Source: a virus
Length of the DNA stretch: 42,549 nt
IMG/VR virus record: IMGVR_UViG_3300022690_001927
Location: 1-42,549 of that record
Reading direction: 5' to 3' (one strand)
Shown here: positions 2,410-40,659 of the stretch, piece after piece
How the letters are laid out: each line of letters starts with the position of its first letter
Position numbering within the stretch: position 1 is the first letter of the stretch
Program-made: the position numbers and the translations under genes
Notes under the pieces: model-generated
The model's database searches: none
Seen by the model: only the letters and a program-made list of their open reading frames with translations
Told to the model about the DNA's origin: nothing

Positions 2410-2823
2410 TTAACCTGTACCTCCATTATCAATAGATGTAGTATCTTTGCCTGGAGGTAGATCACTTTCATCATCTATTGGTTCAGGTTCTAGTTCAGAA
2501 ACATCTTGAGATTTTTTCTCTTTGATTGCTTGAGCTACTTTCTGTCCCTTTCTTACTCCTGCATCTATACCCATCACTAATCCAATCTGGCCAACTATTG
2601 CTGCCATTTGTAATGTAGAGCTGAGATTATCAGGAAGTGCATTAATAACTGGTGCAACTAATCCAATCGATGTTACAATGCCTAGCATGAATGTAGTCAT
2701 TGCCATAGTAGGATTGAACTCTTTCCAGCTCTTTCCTGCCATTCCAGTAAGTATTCTGTATAATACTCCAATGATACAGATTGCAACTGTGATAAGAACA
2801 GGATCTAAACCTAATACTTGCAA
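2410..2823 (-). CDS. membrane protein with about three TM helices, holin-like candidate
   Basis: TTG start at 2823, preceded by the purine-rich block AAAGGGGATAG. Hydrophobic segments at about residues 5-26, 39-62 and 70-88 suggest three TM helices, followed by a basic stretch and an acidic, Asp/Glu-rich cytoplasmic tail (about 105-137). Size, topology and position near the papain-like gene fit a holin, but it could also be a virion or superinfection membrane protein. Confidence 0.5.
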   Translation of the reverse strand: MQVLGLDPVLITVAICIIGVLYRILTGMAGKSWKEFNPTMAMTTFMLGIVTSIGLVAPVINALPDNLSSTLQMAAIVGQIGLVMGIDAGVRKGQKVAQAIKEKKSQDVSELEPEPIDDESDLPPGKDTTSIDNGGTG

Positions 2824-2930
2824 AGGCTATCCCCTTTTTTGATGTTATTTTTAGTCATTATATTTGGTAAAAATATCCAGACTTATGAGAAGTATTTCAA
2901 GGCTAAAAATACAAAATTATTTATTAATTA

Positions 2931-2950
2931 GTATTTAGTACTAAAAATAC
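2931..2950. promoter_or_regulatory. AT-rich palindrome upstream of hairpin array
   Basis: GTATTTAGTACTAAAAATAC has the perfect 12-bp palindrome TTTAGTACTAAA at its centre. CTAAAAATAC is also present at about 2892-2901. It lies 40-60 bp upstream of the plus-strand hairpin array and could be its operator or promoter region. Confidence 0.35.
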
Positions 2951-2990
2951 CTAGTTTGGTTATTGTTTGTCCTCGGACTTTCAATAAAAG

Positions 2991-3107
2991 GTGTCCTTAG
3001 GCCTAGGTGTTATCTAGGCTTTGTCGGACGTGTCCTTAGGCGATAGCGTAAGTATCGCTTTATCGGACGTTGTCTTTGGTTGGTATAACAACCAGAGACA
3101 CATTTTT
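2991..3107 (+). ncRNA. tandem three-hairpin RNA candidate ending in terminator
   Basis: Two exact 39-nt modules (2991-3029, 3030-3068) share 10-nt arms GTGTCCTTAG and TTTRTCGGAC around different hairpins: GCCTAG/CTAGGC with a 7-nt loop, and GCGATA/TATCGC with a 7-nt loop. Stem sequences differ but pairing is kept. A third, degenerate module (3069-3101) is a 12-bp hairpin followed by five T. The one G-U pair in that stem only pairs in plus-strand RNA. No protein explains the region. Confidence 0.6.
3071..3107 (+). terminator. hairpin plus T-run terminator
   Basis: TGTCTTTGGTTG pairs with CAACCAGAGACA (12 bp, one G-U) around a 6-nt loop GTATAA, followed closely by TTTTT at 3103-3107. It forms the 3' end of the proposed plus-strand RNA. 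Confidence 0.6.
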
Positions 3108-3147
3108 AATAATTTTCAAGATAATAAACTGATCAAAATAAATAGTT

Positions 3148-3408
3148 TTAATCATCTATTAGTTCTTTGTATATTTTTTCTATTTCTAATATCTCTTGAG
3201 ATTCATTAGGATGTAATCTCTTTGCCTCAGTTACAAATAATCTTACTACAACTGCAAATGCAATTTTTGTTTTCTTTAATTCTATTGCCTGTTTGTGAAC
3301 GCATTTGTATAGGATAAACATTGAACTTGCTGCACCAGCTATCGCTGCTATAATTAATCCGCTTAGCACTTGCATTATAAAATCAATTTCCAATGTTATT
3401 TCTCCCAT
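3148..3408 (-). CDS. small single-TM membrane protein (86 aa)
   Basis: ATG at 3408, preceded by AAGGGGATAGT, a leader nearly identical to that of 2410-2823. One strong TM helix at about residues 10-32 (VLSGLIIAAIAGAASSMFIL), then a basic and an acidic helical cytoplasmic part. It could be a second lysis or antiholin-like protein; function not recognised. A late-promoter-like motif (3445-3459) lies upstream. Confidence 0.6.
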   Translation of the reverse strand: MGEITLEIDFIMQVLSGLIIAAIAGAASSMFILYKCVHKQAIELKKTKIAFAVVVRLFVTEAKRLHPNESQEILEIEKIYKELIDD

Positions 3409-3527
3409 ACTATCCCCTTGAATTTTTCAGTGTGAAAATCATACAAAAGAACTATGTGAATTGTAATATTTTTTAATCTTTGGTATAATTAGCAAAATTA
3501 TAAAATGACTATTTGCCATCAAGGATG

Positions 3528-3576
3528 CCTGGTATATCAGGTGTCTTTGGTGGTTTTGACTAGGGGATAGTCAAAG
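3528..3576 (+). other. paired short hairpins in intergenic region
   Basis: CCTGGTATATCAGG (3528-3541) is self-complementary with one G-U, and TTTGACTA (3555-3562) pairs with TAGTCAAA (3568-3575) around GGGGA. The first element closely resembles the stem arms at 30336-30390. They lie in the 271-bp spacer between the divergent genes 3148-3408 and 3680-4423. Confidence 0.4.
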
Positions 3577-3639
3577 GTTATTAGATTATTGTAATTTAAA
3601 GAATTATCTAGTGTTTTCTTGGTTTTTATTAAAACAAAG

Positions 3640-3660
3640 AATAGTAGTCTTTATTATATA
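3640..3660 (+). promoter_or_regulatory. TATA-type promoter of the secreted protein gene
   Basis: TTTATTATATA at 3650-3660 is centred about 25 bp before the ATG at 3680, the archaeal TATA-to-start distance for a leaderless transcript. AATAGTAGTCTTT just upstream resembles the motif found before several late genes. Confidence 0.5.
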
Positions 3661-3679
3661 GAACTATTTTTTAATATTA

Positions 3680-4423
3680 ATGATAAAGTATGCAATTATG
3701 AGTTTATTGGTATTTGTAATTTTACTCGTTCCAAGTGTAGCATATGCAGGTCATGAAGGATCTACATGGACTTGGAATGAAGGCTATGGTCCAGAAGAAA
3801 TTAAGGAATGCCAATTTACAGCAAATATTGAAAAGTCATGGGTTTTCTTTACAGAAAGACCTTGGGTAACTGGTTGGATTACGGATTGTGATTCCAATAA
3901 ATATTTTGAAAAAGATAGAGTTTTTGTAAGGATATTAGATATTAATGGTGATCTTGTAGAAAGTGAGTGGTTCACAAAAACTACTGCAAAATCTTCAACT
4001 CCTGAAAAATATGTTTTTACTGAACATGTTTATCGTGAAGGTAGTTTTACAGGCAACGCCAATGTTGAAGAAGATGAAGTGGTATACATACAACCAAATC
4101 AATACTTTTTCTACATGCCACAAATCAATTCAGTAGACTTTGAGCATCGGGGAGTCTATCAGATTGAATTGACTTATGGCGAGCATGTTAGAACTATTTG
4201 GTTTGCTTCATTAAGTCTAGATATTCCTTGGTACCAAGACGAAGTGGACTCTGATTTCTGCAATGATTTTGAAGAACAATTAAATGGATTGAAGAATAGT
4301 GTCAGAGCTCTTGAAAGGCAAATTGATAGATACATATTGCTTGATCAACAAGAAAAAGTATCAGCTACCGTACAGTCTCTGGATGAAGTTGATAACCAAA
4401 TCAAATTACTGAAAGAATGCTAA
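3680..4423 (+). CDS. secreted or surface protein with signal peptide and C-terminal coiled coil
   Basis: 247 residues. A hydrophobic N-terminal signal (about 1-23) ends in AYA-G, a likely signal peptidase site. The middle (25-180) is beta-rich with Trp, Tyr and paired Cys. Residues about 195-247 form a charged helical coiled coil with a terminal Cys. It is one of only two plus-strand genes and has its own TATA promoter. It resembles archaeal cell-surface proteins in style rather than virion genes, so I infer a lysogenic-conversion or host-derived cargo gene. Confidence 0.65.
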   Translation: MIKYAIMSLLVFVILLVPSVAYAGHEGSTWTWNEGYGPEEIKECQFTANIEKSWVFFTERPWVTGWITDCDSNKYFEKDRVFVRILDINGDLVESEWFTKTTAKSSTPEKYVFTEHVYREGSFTGNANVEEDEVVYIQPNQYFFYMPQINSVDFEHRGVYQIELTYGEHVRTIWFASLSLDIPWYQDEVDSDFCNDFEEQLNGLKNSVRALERQIDRYILLDQQEKVSATVQSLDEVDNQIKLLKEC

Positions 4424-7074: not shown

Positions 7075-10013
7075 GTGAATCTCTTTACTCCTTTTATTCT
7101 CCTTTCTAGTCCACCCCTTCCAGCAGGAGGTCTTGATATTGAATACTCTATTTTTTTGGCTACTAGTTTTATTGTGTTTAGTTCATTGTCAGTTGCAGTC
7201 CAAAATTCTGCATTAGGTGGAATGTTGTTTATGTTATCTTTAATGCATTCAAATATTGTTGCTGACTCTGTTACATGATCTCCTATTACATAGTTTGTAG
7301 AAGGTGACCAAGCTGGTGCAGAAGTTATTGGTTTATCTGCATCACTTACCAGTCTTCTGTTTTTTAGGAAAAATGAATCACCAAATTTAATATCAAATAT
7401 ACTTTTACCAGTAGTTACAATATCAAATTCCTTATGTCTAAACTGTTCTATCTGTAAATTGGAATCAGCTACCTCTTGTGCCTGATCAAATAGCATAATA
7501 TCCTGTCTGTGCACCATTTCAGGTTCTAGATTTTTGATAGTATCTACTCCTGAATTTACAACTAGTGCCTTTTTAAAATGCAAGTCATCAATGGTTAGAG
7601 TTATCCTACCACCAAGTGCTGCAGATAATGATGTATTTGATAGATCATTAAGATTTCCTTCTGGTGCAAATCTACCAAAATCGTCGTACTGGTCCTGATG
7701 CTGAATTACAATCCACTTTATATTTCTCTGCTCAAAGATATTTTGATTATCAATCTCCTTTGGATTAATTAGATCAGCTAAATTATTTAGTCTAAAGAAT
7801 CGAGGCTTGTTGTTTCGAATTACATTGTATGCTGAAATCTGTGTATCAATTGGATACATTGCACCATCAGTTGATGTTAGCTCAAAGTCAAATGACCAGA
7901 CATTATCTTCTGTATCTCCCATAAGTATTCGTATTTGTGCTCTGCCATCAAGTGTGAATAGTGTTCCATCAAGTGGGTTTCTTCCCTCTATTTTCAATCC
8001 TAATGCAAGACTAAATGTAACAATTTTGGATAGTCTGTCAGAGTCTTCTTGGTTATATCCTAGCTTTCCATCAGGAGTGCGACCCATATTTGATATGTCA
8101 AGTGTTGCAGGTTCGTTGATTCCTTCAGCTACAGAATTTATGCCACCGCCATAAATATCGCCTACTCCTTCAATTATTCCATTAAATGTAGATACTGGAT
8201 ATGGGAACCGTAGGTTAAACCATGCACCATGAGTCTGATATGCAGACTGGTTTGTTATTCTATCAGCAATTACACTGTTAAAATCATAAACTATCTCTAT
8301 TGCAGAGTCTATGTTTGTTGCAAATGTAGTACCATCTTTTGTTACATCAGGAAACTTTGCACAGTCAGTTTCAGTAGGCTTTGGATCAAATGATGTAGTG
8401 TTTCTTATGGTAGTAAATGGATGAAGACAATCAGCTCCTAAATCACTTGTAGTAATATCACTAAATGTACTGCCAGTGTCATTCCATTGAAACATTTTAT
8501 TTTCTCTCATCACTACAGTCTGCATTTTATCTAGTGTGGAATCAAATTTGTATTTTACAGTAAATATTAATCCTTCAATATTAGGATCTGGATTAGTTAT
8601 AACTTCTACTATACTATCTTCAAACTCTACACCATTAAGATCTACAGCACCACTATTGAATAATCCTGTTCCCTCATTGAGAAACCTAAATCCTCTAGGA
8701 AACCCAAATCCGCCAGCATATGAATAAGCAGTTGACAATCCTTGTGATGGGACACCGCCAACACCGATTGCATGATCATCAACATATGTTCTAAAGAATC
8801 CATTTGCATTAATTACTATATTTCCATCAAATGCACCAGCTCCTGTACTGGTAAATACTCCTGCAGCAAAACTTACATCATCAGGTTTGCACATTCCATT
8901 TAGAATTAATGCAGCTTTGTCTTCAGTCCATTCAGAGTACTGATTGGAATCACCAAATTCATCTGACATATCTATTTGCTCCCAGTTAGAATCAACATCA
9001 GCAGTACATGATGTAGGTCCAGGTGGTGTATTTCCTAAATTACTATCAACTAGGGATTTGTAATGTTGTCCCATGTATTTTACTCTAGCATCTGTAAGAT
9101 ACGATATTGCTATATCCCATTCAGGTCTGAATGTAAACTGAAAAATTCCAGAGTTATACACTTCACGACCCTTTTGTAATGCGCCTGCCCTTGAATCTCC
9201 AACTACATATGATATTGTACCTGTCTGGTTTTCAATATCTGCTTCAATCTCTGAAGGATTTACTGATAGAGTTTTTTCAATAGTTACAGGTTCAGGATTT
9301 CCAGTCTTTGATTCAGGAGATGAACCTGATGAGAAACATCTAAAGTTTATACTAGTAACATCAGGAGTATCAAAACCAAGCTCAAAGAAATCAAATACTC
9401 CTCCTCCTGCTGCTGATGCTCCTTGTCTATCAACCAAATCCATCCATATGTCATAAAAGTAAGCTGGGTTGATTCCATAATCGTAAATGCCTTGTGTAAA
9501 TTTTGGCAAGTCATTTCCTATCTCAGTATCTGGATCATATGTTACATCATGTCCTGAAAGAATAGGCTGTGTAGTTCCGCGATTGTCATTGTATGTATCG
9601 CCAGCTATCTTTGATGGTAAAAATGAAGATGCAAACCAAAACTGTCTAGAGAAATGACCCATTTGTGTATGATATTCTATACCAATACACTCTAAGGATA
9701 GTATTGTTCCTACATCTTTGTCACTACCTGGAATAATTTTTTGCACCTCAAAGAATCTACTGTATGGGTTTCCAGCTATGTCAGTTAATGTTATTTCAAA
9801 ACGGTCAAACTCATCAATTGATATAGGATCTAGTGTTGTAATTCTTCTACCATATGGTGCTTTTAGTGTAATTATACAAGCGTTTACTTCCCCAGATCCC
9901 GAATCAGAAAATAATGGTAATCCTACAACATCTAATTTTATATCATCAAAAGTTGTATAGTTTGTTGTGTGGTCATACCATATTACTGCAAGACCTGTAA
10001 AATTAGATGGCAT
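7071..10013 (-). CDS. large tail hub / baseplate protein with carbohydrate-binding-like modules
   Basis: 980 residues, the largest gene. The N-terminal ~130 residues (DRFEITLTD, FEVQKIIPG) look like a hub or distal-tail beta domain. Two segments near residues ~305-345 and ~915-955 have the CBM5/12-like pattern Y.xGD-V......F.C/Y.S......PP....W. The middle is a long beta-rich region. It is probably the Dit/Tal-type protein linking tube to fibre. Position between the second tube protein and the fibre supports this; the exact fold is inferred. Confidence 0.65.
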   Translation of the reverse strand: MPSNFTGLAVIWYDHTTNYTTFDDIKLDVVGLPLFSDSGSGEVNACIITLKAPYGRRITTLDPISIDEFDRFEITLTDIAGNPYSRFFEVQKIIPGSDKDVGTILSLECIGIEYHTQMGHFSRQFWFASSFLPSKIAGDTYNDNRGTTQPILSGHDVTYDPDTEIGNDLPKFTQGIYDYGINPAYFYDIWMDLVDRQGASAAGGGVFDFFELGFDTPDVTSINFRCFSSGSSPESKTGNPEPVTIEKTLSVNPSEIEADIENQTGTISYVVGDSRAGALQKGREVYNSGIFQFTFRPEWDIAISYLTDARVKYMGQHYKSLVDSNLGNTPPGPTSCTADVDSNWEQIDMSDEFGDSNQYSEWTEDKAALILNGMCKPDDVSFAAGVFTSTGAGAFDGNIVINANGFFRTYVDDHAIGVGGVPSQGLSTAYSYAGGFGFPRGFRFLNEGTGLFNSGAVDLNGVEFEDSIVEVITNPDPNIEGLIFTVKYKFDSTLDKMQTVVMRENKMFQWNDTGSTFSDITTSDLGADCLHPFTTIRNTTSFDPKPTETDCAKFPDVTKDGTTFATNIDSAIEIVYDFNSVIADRITNQSAYQTHGAWFNLRFPYPVSTFNGIIEGVGDIYGGGINSVAEGINEPATLDISNMGRTPDGKLGYNQEDSDRLSKIVTFSLALGLKIEGRNPLDGTLFTLDGRAQIRILMGDTEDNVWSFDFELTSTDGAMYPIDTQISAYNVIRNNKPRFFRLNNLADLINPKEIDNQNIFEQRNIKWIVIQHQDQYDDFGRFAPEGNLNDLSNTSLSAALGGRITLTIDDLHFKKALVVNSGVDTIKNLEPEMVHRQDIMLFDQAQEVADSNLQIEQFRHKEFDIVTTGKSIFDIKFGDSFFLKNRRLVSDADKPITSAPAWSPSTNYVIGDHVTESATIFECIKDNINNIPPNAEFWTATDNELNTIKLVAKKIEYSISRPPAGRGGLERRIKGVKRFT

Positions 10014-12461: not shown

Positions 12462-12824
12462 TTATGTCACCCAGAAAATAGTATTAACTGGTGATTTGAT
12501 CAATGTATTATTTATCTTTGCAGCTACAGTAAATTCCCAATTTCCTATCAAGTCAAGAAATGATGGTGTATCTTCATCTAAAAATACGATAAAAGAGTCT
12601 TCTGGAGTAGATGGGCTTTCAAGAAATGCTCCTTGGTCAAAACCATCTCTCATTTGATCATCTGTAGGGATTTGTATTCCGTCAGGTTTACGAAATACGA
12701 CATATACCTTGTCAAATCCTGTAAGATCTACAGGTACTGGATTGTCAGGATCTGTACGGTCTATAAGCTTGCCTTTCCATTTGTTTCCAGTACTTCTAAA
12801 TTCAAATCTATTTGTTATAGTCAA
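12462..12824 (-). CDS. BppU-like Ig-fold baseplate/tail protein (120 aa)
   Basis: TTG start overlapping the stop of the repeat gene (TTGA). Beta pattern DLTGFDKVYVVFRKPDG ... GNWEFTVAAKINN matches the N-terminal immunoglobulin-like domain of phage baseplate upper proteins (BppU). 120 residues is just that domain. It probably links peripheral tail fibres to the baseplate. It is placed next to the repeat protein, which may be its partner. Confidence 0.55.
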   Translation of the reverse strand: MTITNRFEFRSTGNKWKGKLIDRTDPDNPVPVDLTGFDKVYVVFRKPDGIQIPTDDQMRDGFDQGAFLESPSTPEDSFIVFLDEDTPSFLDLIGNWEFTVAAKINNTLIKSPVNTIFWVT

Positions 12825-13447
12825 ACTGGATTCTCTGAGGTTATCTCCGTAATTAAGTTGTTTTCTGAAGATAGAGTCTTTACAATTATCAGTCCATCAA
12901 TAGTATGCTTAAATTTAGTAGTCTTTTCCACCGCATTGAAAACATTGTGTTTGAAAATTGTAGTTTTCTCTGCTGTGCCAAAAATATCATGTATGAATAT
13001 CGTAGTCTTTGAAATAGCTTCTTGAATATCATGTCTAAATATTGTAGTCTTTGAGACAGCAGCACCTATACTATGTTTGAATATTGTTATTTTTGGTACA
13101 ATTTCTAAAATAGTATGCTTAAATATTGTAGTTTTTGAAACACCTGCAATTATTCCATGTTTGAATATTGTAGTCTTTGATACTCTTATTCCTATCTCAT
13201 GCTTGAATATTGTAGTTTTTGATACGACTTGGGCTACAGTATGCTTGAATATCGTAGTCTTTGAGACAGCATTAATTATGTTATGCTTGAATATCGTAGT
13301 CTTTGCAGCAATTCCATTTACTACGTGTTTGAATATTGTAGTTTTTGAAATAGGTGCTTGAATATCGTGCTTGAATATTGTAGTTTTTGATGCTACTTGA
13401 TCTAAACCTAAAGATACTATATCATGAGTATGTGCTAAAGATGGCAT
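12821..13447 (-). CDS. tandem 14-residue repeat protein, 12 x KTTIFKH
   Basis: 208 residues. Residues 20-187 are twelve contiguous 14-residue repeats with core (S/A/E)KTTIFKH and a variable six- or seven-residue partner containing I/V at alternate places. The N-terminal cap contains HTHDIV; the 21-residue C terminus is acidic. Strong beta propensity and a histidine every 14 residues suggest a beta-solenoid or trimeric beta-helix fibre shaft. It lies between a small beta protein and BppU-like gene with a TTGA overlap, so it is part of the tail operon. No known family recognised. Confidence 0.75.
   Translation of the reverse strand: MPSLAHTHDIVSLGLDQVASKTTIFKHDIQAPISKTTIFKHVVNGIAAKTTIFKHNIINAVSKTTIFKHTVAQVVSKTTIFKHEIGIRVSKTTIFKHGIIAGVSKTTIFKHTILEIVPKITIFKHSIGAAVSKTTIFRHDIQEAISKTTIFIHDIFGTAEKTTIFKHNVFNAVEKTTKFKHTIDGLIIVKTLSSENNLITEITSENPV
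12887..13390 (-). repeat. twelve 42-bp coding repeats (CRISPR-like appearance)
   Basis: On the plus strand a ~23-nt block such as TTGAATATTGTAGTCTTTGA recurs every 42 bp, separated by ~19 variable bases. The period is exactly three-fold and the minus frame is open throughout. Third-base changes dominate inside the conserved block. Confidence 0.85.
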
Positions 13448-30202: not shown

Positions 30203-30440
30203 AAATTAATCTAAAATTATGTCGTTAAAGGAATTATGGATACTCATAAACTATCCATGTGTGAGCAAGGATTTCAAAAAATCTGCCTATGAGTTCCGCT
30301 ATATTATTTTCTTACTGATTAAAAAAGAGTTCTTAGCCTGATATACCCACACCAAAGTTTTGGAACACATAGACTGCAGATATACCAGGCATTTTTTGTT
30401 TTAAAATTTGTATTTTCCTATTAATGATAAAAATAATTGA
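30203..30440. other. 238-bp non-coding region upstream of ParB-methyltransferase
   Basis: No open frame with support. It contains the 12-bp stem element 30336-30390 and a T-run (six T in the minus sense) shortly after it, which fits transcription termination of the 32.8-30.4 kb operon, and presumably the methyltransferase promoter. Confidence 0.5.
30336..30390 (-). terminator. long stem-loop with T-run, terminator-like RNA element
   Basis: In minus-strand RNA GCCUGGUAUAUC (30390-30379) pairs with GGUAUAUCAGGC (30347-30336), all 12 positions, two as G-U. In the opposite strand these would be A-C mismatches. CTTTTTTAATC follows. The intervening 31 nt contain an inner CCAA/UUGG hairpin. Confidence 0.55.
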
Positions 30441-38316: not shown

Positions 38317-38835
38317 TTGTCAAAAAGCAATAATATATCATTTCGACTAAGTGATGAAAATAACGATAAGTTACAAAACTTGGCAGATATGCAAGACAGT
38401 CAAAAAAGTACAGTGGCATCAACCATTGTTACTAGTTTCTTAAATGAAAATATGGAAGATCTAATAATAAACCATATATCATATCCAAGACCTGTAATTA
38501 AGAAACTATTTACTTCATTAAGTGAGGAACAGATAATAAATCTAATATCTGAATTTAATGGTTATAATAAAGGAATAATAAAATCAGCAAGACACAACAA
38601 TTCATCAACCAAGATTTTAATACTTTTAAGAAAATGGCTAAAGTCTTGTGGTTGTGAGGTTCATCTATCATCATATGGCAAGCAACAAAATATAGAGATT
38701 CATCATGAAATGGAGAAGAATTGGTCTGTTGTAACCTGTACAACAATTACGTACATTTTAGAAATACTTGGATATAAAATAAAAAGATCATTTGTTGAAG
38801 ATAGTTGGTTTAAGATTGAGTATCTACCAAATTAG
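38317..38835 (+). CDS. ribbon-helix-helix-type regulator, plus strand (172 aa)
   Basis: TTG start. SNNISFRLSDENNDKLQNLADMQDSQKSTVASTIVTSFL at the start is an Arc/CopG-like RHH (beta strand NISFRL, two helices). The rest is a helical/mixed domain with paired Cys (KSCGCEV) and IEIHHEMEKNW. It is divergent from the early operon and convergent with the integrase, overlapping it by 26 bp. The best candidate for the lysogeny or early-gene regulator acting on the TTGTATCACAA sites (inference). Confidence 0.65.
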   Translation: MSKSNNISFRLSDENNDKLQNLADMQDSQKSTVASTIVTSFLNENMEDLIINHISYPRPVIKKLFTSLSEEQIINLISEFNGYNKGIIKSARHNNSSTKILILLRKWLKSCGCEVHLSSYGKQQNIEIHHEMEKNWSVVTCTTITYILEILGYKIKRSFVEDSWFKIEYLPN

Positions 38836-40063
38836 TTTTATTATAATTTTCTAGTTTTTCATCTCTTAGTTTAGCCAAGGTTTGTTTTGTCTCATTTTCA
38901 AATCTCAGTCTAGCTTCTCGTTCTAGCTTTAAATCTTCTTCTAATTTAGTATTTTTATTTAGTTCAAGTTTTAATGCGTTCTTTTCAGCTTTCTCTTTTG
39001 CCAATTCTAGGACAGCTCTTTCCTCATCTGATATTGTTAGAAATGGTATGGCCTTTTGATATTCTGCGAATCTTTCAAAATCCGCTTCTACATATTTTTC
39101 ATAGGATCCTTGCTGGCTTCCTGCATCTCTACCTTGCATATCTGCTAGATCAGCAAGATTAACCTTAGCTCGCCTCATCATAGTATTGTTGTATTTTCTA
39201 AATCCATGATCTAGCATTACTTCATGTCTTTTTTCTCCAGGCTCTAGTTTTTCCCTCATTCCAATGCCTGAGACAAAGTTTACAGTTCTAGTTTTGACAC
39301 CATTAGCTCTTAATCTTCTTGGGTATGGGAACCGCACCGATACTAGAAATGGATCTTTCTCTGTTGGATATTTGAAGAATCTATTTTTCCATTCTTCCTT
39401 GTATAGTAAAACATACTTGCAAAATTCAGGTGTTGTGTGTGTCCAGTATTCTTCTATGTCTCCGTGATATACTCGAATAGCACCACCTTTTACAGTACTA
39501 TCTTCATTGTAAAAAATGATAACATCTGACCAAGTGAAATAATCCCATGCTTCTAATCTAAATCCGGCAGATGATGCGCCAGTAATGATTATTTTATCTG
39601 CTAGATCAACTGTTCTTTTCATCATTAGTTGAAGCTCCTCTCTAGTGTATGCTCTGTCATTACTTTTACCAACTAGAGGAAGTGATTTGTCTACGAGATA
39701 CCAGGAGATCTCAATATCGTTTGAATTTAATAATGCCTTTATTGGTTTGAGTCTATTTTTGGCAGTTCCTGCAGATATGGTTTTATCTTCAATCTGCTTT
39801 TTTAAATCCCTCACATATGCCTGAATTATTGACTTTGCAATTTTGACGTTCTTTTGAGCAATTTCTGTGAAGCAGGTTGCTAGATCCTGAACTTCTCTTG
39901 ATCTTGGCTCATATGTCAAATATCGTTTGTACATGTCATTTGGAATTAACTGTAAAAAGTGATGCAGATAACTATTGTATTTTCTGAATGTCTCTGTGTT
40001 TCTTATAGAGTCTATAAAATTTTGATATGCATCGCCTTCGATGTCTTCTAGTTTTATTTCCAA
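38810..40063 (-). CDS. int: tyrosine recombinase/integrase
   Basis: 417 residues. An N-terminal SAM-like core-binding helical domain (~10-115) precedes the catalytic domain: Arg169 (AGFRLEAWDYFTW), HGFR at 286-289 (His and Arg), and a Tyr in SQQGSYEKYV (Tyr321/324). This is the divergent archaeal-type arrangement. The C-terminal ~70 residues form a coiled coil. It integrates or excises circular viral DNA. TTG start overlaps the membrane gene. Confidence 0.8.
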   Translation of the reverse strand: MEIKLEDIEGDAYQNFIDSIRNTETFRKYNSYLHHFLQLIPNDMYKRYLTYEPRSREVQDLATCFTEIAQKNVKIAKSIIQAYVRDLKKQIEDKTISAGTAKNRLKPIKALLNSNDIEISWYLVDKSLPLVGKSNDRAYTREELQLMMKRTVDLADKIIITGASSAGFRLEAWDYFTWSDVIIFYNEDSTVKGGAIRVYHGDIEEYWTHTTPEFCKYVLLYKEEWKNRFFKYPTEKDPFLVSVRFPYPRRLRANGVKTRTVNFVSGIGMREKLEPGEKRHEVMLDHGFRKYNNTMMRRAKVNLADLADMQGRDAGSQQGSYEKYVEADFERFAEYQKAIPFLTISDEERAVLELAKEKAEKNALKLELNKNTKLEEDLKLEREARLRFENETKQTLAKLRDEKLENYNKTNLVDTQS

Positions 40064-40445: not shown

Positions 40446-40490
40446 TACAAGATAATTATCTTGGGTCTTATTAAGAGAATACTAAGGTAC

Positions 40491-40534
40491 GGGTCTAGAG
40501 GGATTCGGACCGTAGTATTGTAAGATACAGACCC
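40491..40534 (-). other. 44-nt tRNA-like element
   Basis: Minus strand: GGGTCTG pairs with TAGACCC, then a GTAT-CTTACA-ATAC hairpin and a T-arm-like GGTCCGAATCC. It is a reduced cloverleaf without an anticodon arm, 16 nt downstream of the tRNA. On the plus strand it is followed by six T, so a terminator reading is possible. Confidence 0.4.
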
Positions 40535-40550
40535 ATTTTTTATCATTAAT

Positions 40551-40625
40551 GGAGACGAAGGGCTTCGATCCCTTGATCTCTCAGGTCGTGAACCGAGTAT
40601 TTTATCCATACTATACTACGTCCCC
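40551..40625 (-). tRNA. tRNA gene, probably Val (CAC), irregular arms
   Basis: 75 nt. Acceptor stem GGGGACG/CGTCTCC (7 bp, one G-U). D arm GTAT/ATAC with GG in the loop. T arm AAGGG-ATCGAAG-CCCTT (5 bp). Variable loop 5 nt. Anticodon arm CTCGG/CTGAG with an 8-nt loop TTCACGAC, or a bulged 7-nt loop with CAC. T-loop position 54 is A instead of U. No encoded CCA. Irregularities suggest a viral or decaying copy. Confidence 0.6.
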
Positions 40626-40659
40626 AGCAAAATAATTTTTATAAGAATTAAAAATGTGT

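What the first reader, a model, noticed from the sequence alone, without database searches (positions are those of the whole stretch)
2991..3107. Tandem-hairpin plus-strand RNA with compensatory stem changes
Two exact 39-nt modules carry identical 10-nt arms but different hairpin stems that remain fully paired (GCCTAG/CTAGGC versus GCGATA/TATCGC, both with 7-nt loops), and a third ends as a 12-bp terminator with T-run. Pairing retained while sequence changes is the mark of a functional RNA. The G-U in the last stem picks the plus strand, opposite to nearly all genes. I know no viral RNA family like this.
Basis: partly seen in the sequence, partly recalled or inferred. Interest (0 to 1): 0.75.

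Follow-up and report, generated by a model that had tools for sequence, protein, structure and literature searches.

The report
Orphan tandem-hairpin element in archaeal virus
Between two small membrane-protein genes of a virus that probably infects ammonia-oxidising archaea lies a real string of RNA-like hairpins, built from two copies of one unit whose stems changed but stayed paired; nothing else searched carries it, so it is a credible but unproven small RNA.

Summary
At 2991-3068 two 39-nt units (27/39 identical) keep 12-nt flanks; four stem pairs differ on both sides and all stay Watson-Crick. A 12-bp hairpin plus T5 follows, and a weaker hairpin precedes (2960-2987). The plus strand folds at -51.1 kcal/mol (z -7.5), the minus at -39.3 (z -6.0). 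Three G-U pairs favour plus, weakly. No protein frame is open through it.

The compensation is between two copies in one genome, with chance odds of about 0.006-0.03. No relative carries the element: a covariance model found only the window copies in 27 sources, and it is absent from other neighbourhoods of the flanking gene, from 200-400 Nitrososphaeria genomes and from Rfam. Cross-species covariation is therefore untestable here. TIGR and type III antitoxin readings lack defining features.

The same locus holds a better-supported RNA at 3515-3574, with syntenic homologues and compensatory changes in two relatives.

Most likely a lineage-specific plus-strand noncoding RNA of about 120-150 nt, its function only inferred. 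A hairpin-cluster terminator is the main rival.

The parts
2960..2987 (+). Weak leading hairpin (h0): 6 bp, 3x3 U internal loop, 3 bp, CUCG loop; probably but not certainly part of the element
   Evidence: Fold -7.9 kcal/mol, z -3.8; also predicted in the 150-nt fold
2991..3029 (+). Module 1 (m1): constant 12-nt flanks, stem GCCTAG/CTAGGC
   Evidence: fold -16.5 kcal/mol, z -4.0
3030..3068 (+). Module 2 (m2): same flanks, stem GCGATA/TATCGC; 4 of 12 pairs changed on both sides relative to m1
   Evidence: fold -13.0 kcal/mol, z -2.6
3071..3100 (+). Terminal hairpin (m3): 12-bp stem with one G-U, loop GTATAA; not a copy of the module
   Evidence: fold -18.6 kcal/mol, z -5.6
3101..3107 (+). CATTTTT: T-run, probable 3' end signal (inferred)
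   Evidence: Terminator-like match, 1 found against 0.3 +/- 0.6 in shuffles; U-tract termination in archaea, PMC8716108

Best explanation
The element is a lineage-specific noncoding RNA of about 120-150 nt, transcribed from the plus strand, opposite the late genes, in the gap between two small membrane-protein genes. Shown: a string of hairpins ends in a 12-bp hairpin followed by U5; the two middle hairpins are paralogous copies that keep the outer stem and nearly all of the internal loop while the distal stem varies in sequence but not in pairing. Inferred: the transcript ends at the U-tract, and the constant outer stem plus internal loop (5' GUCC-UU-AGGC ... GCUU-URUC-GGAC 3') is the recognised part, presented twice to an RNA-binding protein as a decoy or scaffold, the distal stem being only a structural prop. 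Transcription, partner and effect are unproven; the decoy step is the least certain (perhaps one chance in three even if the RNA is real).
For: Fold z -7.5 on plus against -6.0 on minus, 12 kcal/mol better on plus. Four pairs changed on both sides, all Watson-Crick, chance 0.006 (0.03 if G-U is allowed). All three G-U pairs favour plus. Terminator-like end on plus, the only one in the region. No open protein frame through it. A second plus-strand hairpin element with homologues lies in the next gap, so plus-strand RNA here is plausible.
Against: No homologue in any relative, host-class genome or collection searched, so no cross-species covariation. No convincing promoter. Minus strand folds almost as significantly. 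The compensation was noticed before it was tested and rests on one pair of copies. No RNA data.
Confidence: 0.45

Rival explanations
1. A hairpin-cluster transcription terminator or insulator. It lies between the end of gene B and the probable promoter of gene A, so it could end minus-strand transcripts leaving B, or stop plus-strand antisense transcription, without being a separate RNA.
For: Position in the B-A gap, upstream of a stretch (CAAATATAATGA, minus strand) that looks conserved before gene A in L002 and L058 (by reading); hairpin plus T5 on plus; strong hairpins on both strands. Clusters of hairpins are reported as terminators in bacteria (PMC8355165, abstract).
Against: Archaeal termination as described needs a U-tract and no strict hairpin (PMC8716108). 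The T-run suits plus, where no gene precedes it. A terminator does not explain a duplicated unit with constant flanks and compensated distal stems.
Confidence: 0.25
2. A DNA-level element: repeated palindromic sites (GTCC/GGAC; GGACGTGTCC at the m1-m2 junction, GTCCTCGGAC at 2969-2978) bound by a viral regulator or replication or recombination protein, possibly extruded as DNA hairpins.
For: Repeated GTCC/GGAC half-sites at regular spacing (sequence); gene content differs among relatives on one side of the gap, as at recombination joints.
Against: Compensated distal stems are not needed for simple DNA sites; the conserved internal loop asymmetry and G-U pairs suggest RNA.
Confidence: 0.15
3. 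A functionless remnant: a local duplication or inserted fragment of a mobile or foreign sequence that happens to be palindromic.
For: Found in this record alone; the gap is about 290 bp longer than the B-A gap of G003.
Against: Flanks are kept intact and changed stems are fully paired, which argues for selection after duplication; no matches to known elements.
Confidence: 0.15

Closest known systems
TIGR stem-loop arrays (TIGR-Tas; PMC12045711)
   Same: Tandem stem-loops with variable but palindromic stems, unit near 36-39 nt, terminator at the end, known from viruses
   Different: Here the flanks are constant and only the stem varies (in TIGR the 8-12-nt spacers vary); no CCA box C; no Nop-domain Tas protein in this or four related records; two units only
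Type III toxin-antitoxin RNA (ToxI and kin)
   Same: Tandem RNA repeats of a similar length followed by a terminator (general knowledge)
   Different: No plus-strand toxin gene directly downstream; next plus ORF is 3680-4423, a protein with a signal-like N-terminus and no family match
Bacterial protein-decoy RNAs (CsrB/RsmZ type)
   Same: Works-like comparison only: repeated hairpins that present one motif several times
   Different: No GGA loops in the modules; only two repeats; archaeal virus; no known partner
Clustered-hairpin terminators (PMC8355165)
   Same: Adjacent hairpins in an intergenic gap with a terminal T-run
   Different: Described for bacteria; here a duplicated unit with constant flanks and compensated stem

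Membership tests
TIGR stem-loop array | Nop-domain Tas protein encoded nearby | tested here: not met
   PF01798 search of the window and four related records: 0 matches, control genomes positive
TIGR stem-loop array | Two variable 8-12-nt spacers flanked by box C (CCA) and box D (UG) | tested here: not met
   Flanks of m1 and m2 are constant, only stem and loop vary, and no CCA lies in either unit (by reading)
Type III toxin-antitoxin | Endoribonuclease toxin gene downstream of the repeats on the same strand | tested here: not met
   No plus-strand ORF of 60 aa or more starts between the T-run and 3680; the 3680-4423 product has no Pfam or PHROG match
Intrinsic terminator | GC-rich hairpin directly followed by a T-run | tested here: met
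   3071-3107 plus, for the last hairpin only
Intrinsic terminator | Ends a transcript in the host | not testable with these tools
   Needs RNA 3'-end data
Known Rfam RNA family | Covariance model score at or above gathering threshold | tested here: not met
   No match in the whole window at gathering threshold; permissive search of 2800-3700 gives nothing over the element
Conserved structured RNA | Covariation across species | tested here: inconclusive
   No homologue found to compare; paralogous compensation only
Conserved structured RNA | Transcribed as a discrete RNA | not testable with these tools
   No transcript data

The most novel reading that the evidence does not exclude
Tailed viruses of Nitrosopumilales-type archaea carry a set of fast-evolving plus-strand hairpin RNAs around their putative lysis module: this tandem element, the conserved 3515-3574 element with its AGGGGA loop (the same word as in the leaders of genes A and B), and a three-hairpin element in G001. 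They would control lysis genes by binding a viral or host RNA-binding protein.
Probability: 0.2. Interest if true: 0.65.

Novelty: new member of a known kind. Interest (0 to 1): 0.38.

Why it matters
Noncoding RNAs of tailed archaeal viruses seem little described (my library searches found no directly relevant paper), and ammonia-oxidising archaea and their viruses matter for the nitrogen cycle. If transcribed, this would be a small viral RNA placed among putative lysis genes, with two internal copies that point to the recognised part. The neighbouring 3515-3574 element is the more promising lead because it has homologues.

Tried and rejected
(1) Exact module pattern in IMG/VR: 0. (2) Junction 16-mer: five hits, none with the hairpin context, about what chance would give. 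(3) Covariance model R1 in relatives and host-class genomes: only the window copies. (4) DNA search in phages and plasmids: chance-level fragments only. (5) Tandem repeats of period 28-69 at 70% identity or more in relatives: none is a hairpin array like this one; the window's own modules, at 69%, fall just below that cut-off, so this scan could miss similar arrays. (6) H/ACA, attC and CRISPR readings: dropped by inspection only (no long lower stem before an ACA, no RYYYAAC/GTTRRRY ends, no spacer pattern). (7) AGGGGAT hairpin pattern: of ten hits only G003 and G004 are true relatives of the 3515-3574 element. (8) One R2 hit in a host-class genome (G054) is GC-rich coding sequence. (9) sigma-70-type promoter matches are not relevant to an archaeal virus.

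Full report
What the window is. It is an IMG/VR virus record of 42,549 bases, 34% GC, with a terminase related at 59-84% to other virus records and at 51% to a contig of a Nitrosopumilales genome. It is therefore probably a tailed virus of ammonia-oxidising archaea. Nearly all genes run on the minus strand. The finding lies in a 324-bp gap between gene B (3148-3408 minus) and gene A (2410-2823 minus), both small membrane-protein genes by the look of their sequence. A gene with an agglutinin C-terminal domain follows at 1460-1882, and relatives carry metalloprotease-like proteins after A (read), so this may be the lysis region (inference).

The element. m1 and m2 are 27/39 identical; the first 12 nt are identical and the last 12 differ once. 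Of 12 pairs in the modelled structure 8 are unchanged and 4 differ on both sides, all Watson-Crick. With the base composition of the gap, four random pairs would all be Watson-Crick with probability 0.006, or standard including G-U with 0.03. That is suggestive, not overwhelming, and it was noticed before it was tested. m3 is not a copy of the module but a 12-bp hairpin followed by CATTTTT. A weak further hairpin lies upstream at 2960-2987. The 117-nt stretch folds at z -7.5 on plus and -6.0 on minus. Plus is favoured by 12 kcal/mol, in good part through three G-U pairs, two of which are copies of one. No frame is open through the element beyond short stretches and Rfam has nothing there.

Relatives. 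The closest homologue of gene A (83%, L002) is alignable only up to window 2877; beyond it different genes follow. G003 has both A and B with only 37 nt between them. G004 has A and no tandem element near it. Further gene-A relatives (L058, L059, L061, L062, L064) show none in the 1.5 kb upstream. A covariance model of m1+m2 finds only itself in 27 sources from related virus records and one Nitrosopumilales contig, and nothing in 200 Nitrososphaeria genomes; a DNA search finds nothing in 400. The collections exclude most metagenome contigs, so closer relatives may exist.

A better-supported neighbour. At 3515-3574 plus, in the next gap, a 17-bp hairpin with five G-U pairs is followed by a hairpin with the loop AGGGGA. 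G003 and G004 have it in the same place and orientation relative to gene A. In the three-sequence alignment 91% of cells pair and four pairs change on both sides, while slid controls fall to 23-50%. Shuffles reach these values in 14-27 of 500, so with three sequences this is good but not decisive. Model R2 was built from these three and finds them by construction; no independent hit is convincing, and the one host-class match is coding sequence. By eye the arms share GUCAAG/CUUGGC with hairpins in G001 (L002 8992-9029 minus) and G009, but the model did not recover those, so a wider family is only a lead. The word AGGGGATAG also stands just before the start codons of genes A and B; whether this is regulation or a ribosome-binding word is not known.

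Mechanism. I favour a plus-strand noncoding RNA whose constant outer stem and internal loop, present twice, are the recognised part. Basis: constant flanks and varying distal stem (shown); plus bias (weak); U-tract end (shown as sequence, function inferred; archaeal termination uses U-tracts with aCPSF1 and no strict hairpin, PMC8716108). The terminator or insulator reading explains position and T-run more cheaply but not the duplicated unit. DNA-level sites and a functionless remnant remain open. No promoter was identified with confidence.

Known systems. The library search brought up TIGR-Tas, whose stem-loop arrays look similar (PMC12045711), but no Nop-domain protein is present and the constant and variable parts are the other way round. 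Type III antitoxin RNAs share repeats plus terminator, but no toxin gene follows. The element is best filed as an orphan candidate viral noncoding RNA: real as a sequence feature, unproven as a gene.

Noticed in passing
window 3515-3574 +; L014 9312-9363 +; L012 2927-2982 -: Syntenic plus-strand element: long hairpin with several G-U pairs plus a hairpin with loop AGGGGA; compensatory and paired-indel changes in three viruses.
   Followed up: yes
L002 about 8905-9035 - (G001): Three adjacent hairpins in an intergenic gap downstream of the lysis-region genes, read opposite to them; the last is 17 bp with four G-U pairs.
   Followed up: partly
window 30318-30400 -; L003 2861-2951; L005 8640-8740: Intergenic hairpin of about 55 nt with an A-run before and a T-run after it, at a matching place in G002 and G004 with different but paired arms; may be a two-way terminator. 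It shares GCCTGGTATATC with the 3515-3574 element.
   Followed up: partly
window 40455-40540 +: Long imperfect hairpin closed by TGGGTCT/AGACCCA and followed by TTTTTT, z -4.9, next to a tRNA-like gene and the integrase-like gene.
   Followed up: no
window 40549-40626 -: tRNA-like gene with a 4-base anticodon call (cacg) beside the integrase-like gene 38810-40063; possibly an attachment site.
   Followed up: no
window 2824-2835 -, 3409-3420 -: AAGGGGATAG stands just before the start codons of genes A and B only, the same word as the loop of the 3515-3574 element.
   Followed up: partly
window, upstream of many minus genes (e.g. 3408, 11929, 15650, 22727, 28115): TARTTCT-like motif 30-60 nt before start codons, perhaps a late viral promoter motif; the one before gene B is kept in G003 and G004.
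   Followed up: no
window 12821-13447 -: Protein with about ten copies of a 14-residue repeat (KTTIFKH), from a 42-bp tandem repeat; a like repeat is seen in L058.
   Followed up: no
L005 10001-11400 (G004 terminase): The translated terminase match of G004 holds a stop codon where relatives read through; cause not examined.
   Followed up: no
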